Source: Stenotrophomonas sp. 610A2 (GTDB taxonomy: Bacteria; Pseudomonadota; Gammaproteobacteria; Xanthomonadales; Xanthomonadaceae). From it: a DNA stretch of 64,000 nucleotides. The notes beneath the pieces were generated by a model that was not told the DNA's origin, ran no database searches, and saw nothing but the letters and a program-made list of their open reading frames with translations. Position 1 is the first letter of the stretch. The number at the start of each line of letters is the position of its first letter. Positions 50,195 to 55,226 of the stretch are shown piece by piece. The translations under genes were made by a program, and so were the position numbers. The stretch spans positions 3,472,001 to 3,536,000 of the forward strand of contig NZ_CP130832.1 of NCBI RefSeq assembly GCF_030549615.1, written 5' to 3'.

Positions 50195-50767
50195 TCAGTG
50201 CAAACCGTCTTCGCGCCGCACCATCGCCCTGCCCTCGATCACTTCGAAGGTGAAGGCATATGCCAGGGTTACCGGCACCGCCTCGATGCGTGAGGCAGTG
50301 CTGCAGTCCCCGTTCGACGGCGCCTGCACACCGGCAGCGTAATGGCAGACTGCAGCCGGCTCGAACGACCACCCGGAAGTGGCGACCAGCGCAGCCTGCA
50401 GCAAGCCTGCATTAACCGTGTCACTTCCCGCACCGCAGGCCGAATGCGCCAACAGCGGCGCGCTGCGTTCCACCCGCCCCTGCGCATCCAGGATGACATT
50501 CACGCATACCGTAGTGGCATCCAGCGAACGTTTTGCGTACTCCGACGGCAACACCGGATCATCCGCAGTTACGGCAACCGGCATGCGAAAGCTTTCCGTG
50601 GCGGCTAACTGATAGGGCTGTATCTCGCCTGCACCACCGGAAGATTCCGGCGTCAGCATCTGCCGGTGCTGGTTGAGGTTGAAACTCCTGCTCGCCTGCT
50701 CTTTCTGCGGCTGCGTCGCACAGCCGGCGAGCATCAACGCGGCCAGCACCGCGGCATGCCCGCGCAC
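50195..50767 (-). CDS. Predicted lipoprotein with a divergent TonB-C-like domain
   Basis: A 190-residue lipoprotein from a GTG start one base after the stop of the upstream gene (TGA-G-GTG). The signal AALMLAGC puts the lipidated cysteine at residue 16. The segment VCVNVILDAQGRVERSAPLL and the later LLQAALVATSGWSFEPA resemble the strand-helix-strand core of TonB C-terminal domains, as does the domain of the neighbouring gene. It has four more cysteines, possibly two disulfides. It is probably the last gene of the BlaI-M56 operon. An internal ATG at residue 12 is too late for a signal peptide. Confidence 0.65.
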   Translation of the reverse strand: MRGHAAVLAALMLAGCATQPQKEQASRSFNLNQHRQMLTPESSGGAGEIQPYQLAATESFRMPVAVTADDPVLPSEYAKRSLDATTVCVNVILDAQGRVERSAPLLAHSACGAGSDTVNAGLLQAALVATSGWSFEPAAVCHYAAGVQAPSNGDCSTASRIEAVPVTLAYAFTFEVIEGRAMVRREDGLH

Positions 50768-50768
50768 C

Positions 50769-51614
50769 TCAGCCCCTGCTCTGGGTTTCGGTGTAGTGCA
50801 TTTCTTCTTCGTCCATATCAAACGAGATCGGCACCCGGATGAGGCCAGCAACCGGCTTGCCGTCCTTCATCGCTGGTGTGAAACGCCACTGCCTTGCAGC
50901 GGCAATCGACACTTCCTCGAACACCCCCTTGGGATGCGCCTCGGTGACCACCACGTCGGTCGCCCGGCCTTCTGCATCCACCGCGATACGCAGCACCACC
51001 TTGCCACTGGTGCCACTGTCGATCGCAGCGCGCGGATAGCTGGGCGGCGGCATCCGCCCGGCATTCGGCAAGCCGACCTGTTCGGCCTTGCCGGAAGCTG
51101 CCGATACGATGGCCGGATCCCCTGCTGCCAAGGCGACCGAACGCAGCTCCAGTGCCCAGGTCGAGCGCCCGTCAGCGGTGGACACTTCAATGCCTGCCGC
51201 CACATCGGGTTTGATCAGCAAGGTCGGCGACGAAATCAGGTCCCCGTTCGCCTTCAGTGTGCCCTTGAGCGTGAGCATGCCGTCGGCGGCAGGCTGCAAG
51301 GTGAACTCCGCTGCCCACTGCACGCCCTTGTCCGAGCTGGCACTGAAAGAGAACGGCGTGCCTGCCGACTGCTGCAGCTCAAAGCGCTGCTTGGTGCCCT
51401 CCAGCGTCGCCTCCACGAAGGTGGCATACACCGTGCCCTTCCCGGTCGTCGTCGAGGTCGATGAAGAAGACGATGTGGACGTCGACGAGGAGGTGGACAC
51501 CGCCTTGCCCGGTTGCGCAGCCCACGCGGTATAGCCGAAAGCGAACGACAAGCCCAACGACAACACCAACATGGCACACCACTGCTTCCTGCCCGGTACG
51601 GGACGCTTCAACAT
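50769..51614 (-). CDS. TonB-like C-terminal part of a split M56 gene, possible separate product
   Basis: This stretch lies after an in-frame amber codon and could be translated alone from the ATG at 51614, which has AAGGAG nine bases upstream. The product (281 residues) would begin with a basic stretch and one membrane helix (WCAMLVLSLGLSFAFGYTAWA). A Ser/Thr linker, a beta-rich middle and a TonB C-terminal domain follow (PPPSYPRAAIDSGTSGKVVL ... ARQWRFTPAMKDGKPV). That is the layout of an energy-transducer-like protein. Without this internal start it is just the tail of the interrupted gene described in the spanning entry. Confidence 0.6.
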   Translation of the reverse strand: MLKRPVPGRKQWCAMLVLSLGLSFAFGYTAWAAQPGKAVSTSSSTSTSSSSSTSTTTGKGTVYATFVEATLEGTKQRFELQQSAGTPFSFSASSDKGVQWAAEFTLQPAADGMLTLKGTLKANGDLISSPTLLIKPDVAAGIEVSTADGRSTWALELRSVALAAGDPAIVSAASGKAEQVGLPNAGRMPPPSYPRAAIDSGTSGKVVLRIAVDAEGRATDVVVTEAHPKGVFEEVSIAAARQWRFTPAMKDGKPVAGLIRVPISFDMDEEEMHYTETQSRG

Positions 51615-51764
51615 GGCAATACGCTCCTTCAATGGATGATAGTTCTGCCAGTGACACCCCACCGGCAACGGGGACGCGGCCAGCCCGGTCTTGAGCATGG
51701 CCTCGCCGTAACTGCGGCGTGCGCCCGAGACCCGGGCAATCACGCGTTCATCGCAGGACAATTC

Positions 51765-52394
51765 CTAATCTTCACGGCAGCAGCGCAGGGCGAACAACAA
51801 CAACGGGTTGAACCAGTACAGGCACTGCAACAGCGCCAGCAATGCGTTGATCACGATGTCGCCGCGTTGCAGATGCACGCGCTCATGCAGCAGTACCAGT
51901 TGTTGCTCGATCGGCAGATAGCGTTGTTCAAAGCCGGCCGGCAACACGATCCGCGGCCGCAACAAACCCATCGCCGCAGGCAAGCCCGCCACTGCCTGCG
52001 CCTGCCACAGGCCGTCATCGCGTTGGCTGAGCCGACCCAGCCCGCGCTGGAAACTCCGCTGCTGGCGATACAGATGCACTGCCATCAACAGCCCCCCGGC
52101 CAACCATGCGCAGCACAGCCACAGCGGCCAATGCGCAATCACGGCAGGACCAGCAACTACTGCCTGCCCGACCTGTACCGCCACCTCGCTGACCCGCATC
52201 GGCACCGCCGCAACCCGTGGTGCAGGCAACAGCGCCGCCAGCAGCATCACCGGCAACAGCATCCACAGCAGATAGGCGGCACTTGCTCCCAACCAGTGCC
52301 GCAGCGGGCGGCGCAGGATCAACGCCAGCGTGACTGCGGCACTGCTGGCCAAGGTGGTCTTCAGCAACAGCGCAAGGATCTCAGTGCTGCTCAT
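51765..52394 (-). CDS. Truncated M56-family (BlaR1/MecR1-like) membrane metallopeptidase
   Basis: The first 209 residues of the interrupted gene. Four membrane helices lie at about 6-27, 36-58, 86-108 and 182-203. The cytoplasmic region contains the gluzincin motif HERVH at 170-174. In intact relatives a periplasmic signal triggers cleavage of the partner BlaI-type repressor. Here the third zinc ligand lies beyond the stop codon, so the truncated product should lack protease activity. The start at 52394 gives MSSTEILALLLK. It may still act as a membrane partner, but that is speculation. Confidence 0.75.
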   Translation of the reverse strand: MSSTEILALLLKTTLASSAAVTLALILRRPLRHWLGASAAYLLWMLLPVMLLAALLPAPRVAAVPMRVSEVAVQVGQAVVAGPAVIAHWPLWLCCAWLAGGLLMAVHLYRQQRSFQRGLGRLSQRDDGLWQAQAVAGLPAAMGLLRPRIVLPAGFEQRYLPIEQQLVLLHERVHLQRGDIVINALLALLQCLYWFNPLLLFALRCCRED

Positions 52395-52755: not shown

Positions 52756-52757
52756 CG

Positions 52758-52793
52758 TTTACGCCTGTAATTTTTTACGATTACACGAGTAAA
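52758..52793. promoter_or_regulatory. Candidate BlaI-type operator
   Basis: TTTACG occurs at 52758-52763 and again at 52774-52779. The second copy also faces GTAAA at 52789-52793, giving a 20-base element with inverted TTTAC arms. It lies just before the blaI-like start in an A+T-rich patch, the place expected for an autoregulatory operator. Confidence 0.5.
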
Positions 52794-52843
52794 CGAAAGC
52801 CCTGTCAAGCCCTCACCAAGTGATTCAGGGCGGACATGCTGTA

Positions 52844-54877: not shown

Positions 54878-55208
54878 GTAGGAGCGGTGTAAGCCGCGAA
54901 GCTGATAACCCTTGACTATCGTCAGCTTTATCTGTTGCCAGCTTCGCGGCTGACGCCGCTCCCACAACGGCTGGGATGCCGGGAAAGCCCCCTTGCCGAG
55001 CATGGCTCGGCACTACAGATCTGCTCCCTCCCTTTCGCGTAGCGAAGGGGAGAACTGGGGAGGGGTTAGCCTTTTGCTGGGCAAGCCCCTGCCGAGCATG
55101 GCTCGGCACTACAGATCTGCTCCCTCCCTTTCGCGTCGCGAAGGGGAGGGTTGGGGAGGGGTTGGCCTTTTGCTGGGCAAGCCCCTGCCGAGCATGGCTC
55201 GGCACTAC
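54878..55208. repeat. REP doublet followed by a 96-base tandem array
   Basis: There is no gene in this 444-base gap. A GTAGGAGCGGTG copy at 54878-54903 faces an inverted copy at 54940-54965. Inverted SMAG copies then lie at 54994-55016, 55090-55112 and 55186-55208, exactly 96 bases apart. Between them are two C-rich hairpins (TTCGC-GTA-GCGAA and TTCGC-GTC-GCGAA) and the same linker CTTTTGCTGGGCAAGC. Two full units and a third start make a young tandem array. Confidence 0.92.
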
Positions 55209-55226
55209 AGTTGGGGCGGAGCCAAA

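What the first reader, a model, noticed from the sequence alone, without database searches (positions are those of the whole stretch)
50769..52394. In-frame amber codon splits an M56 sensor protease from its TonB-like domain
Codon 210 of a continuous 542-codon frame is TAG, with no shift in frame on either side. The stop falls between HERVH and the E211/D215 residues expected to finish the zinc site. A CAG to TAG transition explains it. The repressor and operator next door look intact, so a broken sensor would leave the operon locked, unless the amber is read through or the two halves work as separate proteins.
Basis: partly seen in the sequence, partly recalled or inferred. Interest (0 to 1): 0.75.

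Follow-up and report, generated by a model that had tools for sequence, protein, structure and literature searches.

The report
Nonsense-broken sensor gene with hidden start
A single stop codon appears to have inactivated a membrane sensor-protease in this Stenotrophomonas strain, and comparing its intact relatives turned up something less ordinary: the gene seems to carry a second, conserved start signal that would make its sensor tail as a separate protein.

Summary
On the minus strand, codon 210 of an otherwise open M56 (BlaR1-type) frame is TAG, directly before the glutamate expected to complete the zinc site. It is a rare allele. The 29 genus relatives fetched all have a sense codon there, a database protein with 9 differences in 540 residues is full length, and 2 of 395 family genomes have TAA/TAG in this motif. 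None of 61 tRNA genes reads UAG, and RF1 is present. E211 precedes the first downstream start codon, so no two-piece product can rebuild the zinc site. The protease is most likely dead; repressor and twin operators look intact.

Beyond the finding, the gene holds a strong internal ribosome-binding site and ATG (51629-51612), downstream of the stop and just before the last membrane helix. Of 118 loci read across the family, 113 parsed (110 distinct genes): 106 of 110 keep the ATG, 91 keep AAGGAG, in 25 of 29 genera. Synonymous codons lean towards it and the site is unusually unstructured. The predicted product is a signal-peptide-like helix plus a TonB-like domain. This rests on comparative sequence alone; no expression data were available.

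The parts
52803..52808 (-). -35 element TTGACA of the blaI promoter
   Evidence: sequence; 17 bases before TGTAAT; CTTGAC present in 14 of 14 parsed upstream regions, of 16 orthologous loci tried
52780..52794 (-). operator 1 GTTTACTCGTGTAAT; its last six bases (52785-52780) fit a -10 element
52757..52771 (+). operator 2, same site in opposite orientation (GTTTACGCCTGTAAT on +)
   Evidence: the two exact copies are the only ones in the genome
52381..52755 (-). BlaI/MecI-type repressor, 124 aa, intact
   Evidence: PF03965 E 4.4e-35; dN/dS 0.00-0.08 against three relatives
51765..52394 (-). 5' piece of the M56 sensor-protease gene: 209 codons plus TAG; contains HERVH (residues 170-174)
51765..51767 (-). 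in-frame amber codon (codon 210)
50769..51764 (-). 3' piece of the same frame: 331 codons plus TGA; starts with E211 (expected third zinc ligand), ends in a TonB_C domain
51624..51629 (-). internal Shine-Dalgarno-type sequence AAGGAG (codons 256-257, Lys-Glu)
51612..51614 (-). internal ATG, codon 261, 9 bases after AAGGAG
50769..51614 (-). proposed internal-start product, 281 aa: basic n-region, hydrophobic helix, AWAAQP, beta domain, TonB_C
   Evidence: inference
51510..51527 (-). AWAAQP (residues 290-295), possible signal-peptidase site after the last membrane helix
   Evidence: invariant in 27 of 27 aligned proteins; A/V-W-A/S-x-Q-P in 85 of 109 loci with the ATG, -1 residue 31-33 from the internal Met
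50195..50767 (-). downstream small TonB-like lipoprotein frame; start uncertain (GTG just after the TGA)
   Evidence: weak TIGR01352 match 16.5 bits, below the cut-off of 27.1; lipobox read by eye

Best explanation
The window holds a BlaI-type repressor gene and the M56 sensor-protease gene that should antagonise it; in this strain the sensor gene carries a recent nonsense change at codon 210. Shown: the stop, its absence from the relatives read, and no suppressor tRNA found. Inferred: translation ends with a 209-residue membrane fragment that has both zinc histidines but lacks the third ligand E211, so the protease is inactive and BlaI stays on its own operators. Also inferred, from comparative evidence: ribosomes can still start at the conserved internal site AAGGAG-9nt-ATG (codon 261). 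They would make a 281-residue product (signal-peptide-like last helix, AWA|AQP site, periplasmic beta and TonB-like domains). In intact relatives this gives two products from one gene, the full sensor-protease and a separate sensor tail, much like the tail that BlaR1 releases by autocleavage and signal peptidase. In this strain only the tail would be left beside a dead fragment.
For: Stop rare: 29 of 29 fetched genus relatives (of 85 other genomes with a match) have a sense codon there; 2 of 395 family genomes have TAR in the motif; the residue is invariant in 27 of 27 aligned proteins. Intact near-identical allele: P0001, 541 aa, 4 + 5 differences. No CTA/TTA anticodon in 61 of 61 tRNA genes; RF1 present. 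Zinc site: BlaR1 H201ExxH/E242xxxD (PMC9834060, passages; mutants in PMC3356374, passages); the family profile matches BlaR1 structures (profile 149-236, chain 180-268), consistent with E211 = E242, not shown residue by residue. Internal start, 110 distinct genes: ATG in 106, AAGGAG in 91; 25 of 29 genera. Lys-Glu is AAGGAG at the site in 91 of 95, elsewhere in the same genes in 7 of 31. Arg is AGA in 36 of 81 loci outside the genus; of the other 35 Arg columns one, inside the site, reaches 17% and the rest at most 3.4%. MFE above the mean of synonymous resamples in 99 of 109 loci and above the gene mean in 108 of 109. Other in-frame ATGs have a strong SD in 62 of 1101, 57 of these 62 in the region of the gene's own start. 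In 15 genes the Met sits one codon earlier only; 13 of them keep AAGGAG. The long M56 paralogue type shows no such site in 24 of 25 loci.
Against: No transcript, ribosome or protein data. The stop rests on one assembly. Selection on both pieces is still purifying (dN/dS 0.08-0.13), which fits a recent stop but also a maintained two-piece gene. 15 of 106 genes with the ATG lack AAGGAG; genera g7, g18, g32 and g52 show no AAGGAG+ATG. In the column scan the most biased column in the genus lies outside the site (offset -21), as do the second and third in other genera (offsets -42, -237). Met261 and LKER are also conserved as protein. Related sequences were treated as independent in the Fisher tests. 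The signal-peptide call is by simple features, no dedicated predictor.
Confidence: 0.66

Rival explanations
1. The TAG is a base-calling or assembly error and the gene is intact in the living strain.
For: Only one codon is involved, the frame is otherwise perfect, neither piece shows relaxed selection, and a nearly identical full-length protein exists.
Against: The genome is one contig, rated 100% complete; a similar stop occurs independently in G124, and two further relatives have other disruptions, so loss of this gene does happen.
Confidence: 0.13
2. The stop is read through at a useful level, setting a low dose of full sensor (regulated or leaky suppression).
For: Both pieces remain under purifying selection; the same column carries an ochre in a second genus.
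Against: No suppressor anticodon in 61 tRNA genes; RF1 present; the stop is in none of the 29 genus relatives read. With three in-frame stops known, a coincidence at one site is not improbable (my estimate, roughly 1 in 10, not computed).
Confidence: 0.06
3. The two pieces are separate, cooperating proteins that together make an active split protease.
For: BlaR1 is a domain-swapped dimer in which helix 9 and the last helix pack on the partner (PMC9834060, passages), so a separate tail could in principle pack on an N-terminal piece.
Against: E211 is in neither product: it follows the stop and precedes the first possible restart (TTG codon 212); the strong internal start is at codon 261.
Confidence: 0.03
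4. The AAGGAG at codons 256-257 is a translation pause that helps the last helix insert, not a start site. (This rival concerns the internal site only; its odds do not add to those above.)
For: It lies just before the last membrane helix; internal SD-like sequences have been suggested to slow ribosomes, a claim that the abstract of PMC5100845 calls controversial (abstract and start of introduction).
Against: A pause needs neither an ATG at start spacing nor an unstructured flank. Yet the ATG is kept when it moves one codon (15 genes, 13 with AAGGAG), the site is less structured than synonymous resamples, and none of the 4 parsed genes without the ATG has AAGGAG, though 2 of them have AGGGAG.
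Confidence: 0.2

Closest known systems
BlaR1/MecR1 beta-lactam sensor-proteases with BlaI/MecI (Staphylococcus, Bacillus)
   Same: M56 gluzincin with HExxH and ExxxD, neighbouring BlaI-type repressor, single C-terminal extracytoplasmic domain after a last membrane helix, possible signal-peptidase site at the start of that domain
   Different: C-terminal part is a beta domain plus TonB_C, with no penicillin-binding domain match; BlaR1 NCBIfam score 89.4 bits at best against a cut-off of 400; no resistance gene among the frames read beside it (by eye, not searched systematically)
M56-TonB sensor genes of Xanthomonadaceae named 'TonB family protein'
   Same: Same architecture and length in intact relatives, e.g. 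P0010 and P0011
   Different: This copy has the amber codon 210
Bacterial genes with in-frame internal starts (CheA short form, infB, CcmM short form; named in PMC11005335, passages)
   Same: One frame, two starts, the shorter product with its own role
   Different: Here only inferred from comparative sequence; the short form would begin with a signal-peptide-like helix and so change compartment

Membership tests
Peptidase M56 (PF05569) | Pfam profile match over the gathering score | tested here: met
   142.7 bits for the 5' piece, 43 bits for the 3' piece, cut-off 31
Peptidase M56 (PF05569) | HExxH plus ExxxD in one polypeptide | tested here: not met
   HERVH before and E211/D215 after the TAG; met in 29 of 29 fetched genus relatives
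BlaR1/MecR1 beta-lactam sensor | NCBIfam equivalog score | tested here: not met
   68.9 bits (5' piece) and 89.4 bits (intact database relative P0001), cut-off 400
BlaR1/MecR1 beta-lactam sensor | C-terminal penicillin-binding domain | tested here: not met
   Besides the end of the M56 domain, only TonB_C was found in the tail
BlaI-controlled operon | BlaI-type repressor with paired operators over its promoter | tested here: met
   by sequence; binding itself not tested
Programmed stop-codon readthrough | Stop conserved among orthologues | tested here: not met
   29 of 29 fetched relatives have a sense codon; 2 of 395 genomes have TAR
Programmed stop-codon readthrough | Suppressor tRNA | tested here: not met
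   61 of 61 tRNA genes found have other anticodons
Gene with internal in-frame start | SD and start codon in frame, kept at nucleotide level | tested here: met
   not kept in 4 of 29 genera
Gene with internal in-frame start | Short product detected | not testable with these tools
   no expression or proteome data; three of the 120 listed database proteins begin at that Met (P0016, P0027, P0045), their contigs were not read

The most novel reading that the evidence does not exclude
The M56-TonB sensor genes of this bacterial family are dual-start genes. A conserved internal start makes the last helix plus sensor domain as a separate exported protein, the translational counterpart of the tail that BlaR1 frees by autocleavage and signal peptidase. 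It could act as a decoy, as a partner that swaps into the sensor dimer, or as an independent periplasmic TonB-like protein. In strains such as this one, where the protease part is broken, that second product alone would persist.
Probability: 0.62. Interest if true: 0.66.

Novelty: new variant of a known kind. Interest (0 to 1): 0.52.

Why it matters
As a broken gene the finding is ordinary. The internal start would mean that a class of bacterial sensor-proteases spread over most genera examined in this family makes two proteins from one frame, one membrane protease and one exported sensor tail. That would change how mutants and domain truncations of these sensors are read, and would give a simple test of what the free tail does. 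In BlaR1-type receptors a freed sensor fragment arises by proteolysis; a genetically encoded fragment would let its role be tested apart from cleavage.

Tried and rejected
Recurrent stop at one codon: G124 (another genus) has an ochre at the very same column, G141 an opal elsewhere in the 5' part, and G107 a frameshift. G178's stop is its natural end and G051's short frame is a contig edge. With so few disruptions, two at one site is not strong evidence of design (my estimate, not computed), and the pattern search found only 2 of 395. The match lists were truncated by the tool, so no full denominator is claimed from them.

CTC codon bias at the internal site was considered as a sign of selection and dropped: CTC is the commonest Leu codon before Lys elsewhere in these genes (34 of 65 in the genus, 42 of 98 outside). 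The column scan is mixed. In the genus 7 of the 14 most biased of 171 columns lie in the site (offsets -1 to 7), but the top one does not. In other genera the site holds 5 of the top 16 of 152, including the first.

Reinitiation at the stop: TTG codon 212 has only AGGA one base upstream and would start after E211; rejected as a rescue of the protease.

A row (CoA-transferase) was read in a wrong frame and is dropped. Of 118 loci given, five did not parse (L149, L156, L165, L179, L198). L179 and L198 were seen later: L179 has no start there, L198 has AAGGAA and ATG. Three of the 113 parsed loci repeat genes already in the set (L118=L036, L119=L039, L121=L040; checked). Counts are for 110 distinct genes; those still hold the three repeats. 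The loci were picked from listed matches, not drawn at random: 29 of 85 other genomes with a match, and 89 matches from the list. In one search, 5 of 30 loci are this gene type; of the 25 of the long type two (L003, L027) may show the wrong frame and one (L031) has an unrelated SD+ATG.

The structure model of the tail is modest (pLDDT 68.9, pTM 0.35). Only its TonB_C part has clear natural matches; the beta domain gave none that I trust.

Literature: searches listed no paper on an internal start in M56/BlaR1 genes; they cover the held open-access library only, and searches listed 15, 10 and 10 of 266, 13 and 43 papers.

Full report
What is there. The window is part of a one-contig, 4.68 Mb genome. 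The tool groups it with 90 other genomes of one genus; the two close named relatives found by sequence are Stenotrophomonas sp. PS02298 and S. terrae DSM 18941. On the minus strand lie, in order, a BlaI/MecI-type repressor (52755-52381), the M56 sensor-protease frame (52394-50769) and a small TonB-like lipoprotein frame. Codon 210 of the sensor frame is TAG (51767-51765). Both sides are open in one frame, and the two pieces cover PF05569 positions 3-238 and 240-296.

Is the stop shared? No. In the genus, 86 of 91 genomes have a match to the 5' piece, one of them this genome. I read the 29 best others: all 29 have a sense codon at the column and the motif E-[LF]-[AS]-C-D after it. The column is invariant in 27 of 27 aligned full-length proteins. 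A database protein of 541 residues (P0001) differs from the two pieces at only 4 of 209 and 5 of 331 positions, so an intact near-identical allele exists. A pattern for this motif with TAA or TAG in the column hits 2 of 395 family genomes: this one and G124, of another genus, with TAA. Other disruptions seen are an opal elsewhere (G141) and a frameshift (G107). In all four the tail frame downstream stays open, but four cases prove little.

Can it be read or bypassed? All 61 tRNA genes found by the Rfam model were covered by the stretches given to ARAGORN; none has anticodon CTA or TTA. RF1 is present over its cut-off. In BlaR1 the zinc is held by the histidines of H201ExxH and by E242 of ExxxD (PMC9834060, passages read). 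Changing the matching residues in Bacillus licheniformis BlaR1 gives a non-inducible phenotype (PMC3356374, passages read). The family profile matches BlaR1 structures 8exp/8exs, profile 149-236 on chain 180-268. This is consistent with E211 being E242; I did not see it residue by residue. E211 is the codon right after the stop; the first start codon downstream is TTG 212. No product that ends at the stop or starts after it contains E211. I conclude that the protease is dead unless there is readthrough.

What follows for regulation. Two copies of GTTTACnnnTGTAAT in opposite orientation lie between the -35 box and the blaI start, and the last six bases of one copy fit the -10 box. Of 16 orthologous loci tried, 14 upstream regions parsed; both copies are recognisable in these 14, in several with mismatches, and the nearest is identical to the window. 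The exact site occurs twice in the genome, both here; with one mismatch there are two more, against 3 hits for the backward control. So the likely effect, by analogy with BlaR1/BlaI, is constant repression of mainly this operon. Selection is still purifying on both pieces (dN/dS 0.08-0.13 against three relatives), which fits a recent event.

The unexpected part: an internal start. In each of the 29 genus relatives and in the window, AAGGAG stands 9 bases before an in-frame ATG at the codons for LKERIxML. I then read loci across the family: 118 given, 113 parsed, 110 distinct genes. The ATG is kept in 106 of 110 and AAGGAG in 91, always together with the ATG; of the 4 genes without the ATG two have AGGGAG and two nothing similar. 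By genus, 25 of 29 have AAGGAG+ATG in at least one locus; with one locus per genus it is 22 of 29.

Protein conservation alone does not explain it. (a) Lys-Glu is written AAGGAG at the site in 91 of 95 cases and in 7 of 31 elsewhere in the same genes (with the three repeats 94 of 98 and 7 of 32, Fisher p 1.6e-16, relatedness ignored). (b) Outside the genus the Arg after it is AGA in 36 of 81; of the other 35 Arg columns one, inside the same site, reaches 17% and the rest at most 3.4%; one per genus, 13 of 29 are AGA. (c) In the genus the codons there are mostly TTG, CGT and ATT, minority codons elsewhere in these genes. (d) The 60 bases around the ATG are less structured than the rest of the gene (mean z 2.33; 108 of 109 loci) and than synonymous resamples (99 of 109 above the mean, 45 at p<0.05). 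(e) In 15 genes the Met lies one codon earlier only, at 6-base spacing, and 13 of these keep AAGGAG. (f) Of 1101 other in-frame ATGs 62 have a strong SD, 57 of them in the region of the gene's own start. (g) The longer M56 paralogue of the same genus shows no strong SD with in-frame ATG in 24 of 25 loci. A member in another family of the order has AAGGAGAGA..ATG too. Against: 15 of 106 genes with the ATG lack AAGGAG. Genera g7, g18, g32 and g52 show no AAGGAG+ATG. The single most codon-biased column in the genus lies outside the site.

What the internal product would be. From Met261 it is 281 residues: a basic stretch, a hydrophobic helix (105 of 109 loci have both by a simple score), then A-W-A-A-Q-P, invariant in 27 of 27, a beta domain and a TonB_C domain (PDB matches 6i97, 1u07). 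In S. aureus BlaR1 the chain cuts itself between Ser283 and Phe284 and is cut by signal peptidase at Gly331/Gln332, between the last helix and the sensor (PMC9834060, passages). By the offset of about 31 residues, Met261 would lie a few residues after the self-cleavage point, so the internal product would resemble that tail. This equivalence is inference, as the profile alignment stops before it. Three of the 120 listed database proteins, of 259-265 residues, start exactly at this Met, but their contigs were not read. Bacterial genes with two in-frame starts are known (PMC11005335, passages); my searches listed none for M56 sensors (open-access library only).

Verdict. The reported amber is real in the assembly and most likely a strain-level loss of the protease. 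I find no sign that it is programmed or that the halves form a working split enzyme. The more interesting matter is the conserved internal start downstream of it, a new variant of a known kind, supported only by comparative sequence so far.

Noticed in passing
52394-50769 against L062: dS to Stenotrophomonas sp. PS02298 is 0.30-0.43 in the sensor gene but 0.07-0.12 in blaI, the lipoprotein and the S1/P1 nuclease, which suggests that one of the two strains took this gene by recombination.
   Followed up: no
L140 (genome G124): An ochre codon stands at exactly the same column of an M56-TonB gene in another genus, with the internal AAGGAG and ATG present downstream.
   Followed up: partly
54977-55210: Stretch with a 96-base tandem repeat, 2.4 copies, 93% matches, which opens frames on both strands.
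   Followed up: partly
52757-52808: The blaI promoter has its likely -10 box inside operator 1 and a second operator just before the start codon; the exact operator is found nowhere else in the genome.
   Followed up: yes
L209 (genome G107): The homologous gene is frameshifted after about 250 codons, in a genus (g18) whose parsed members lack the internal start.
   Followed up: partly
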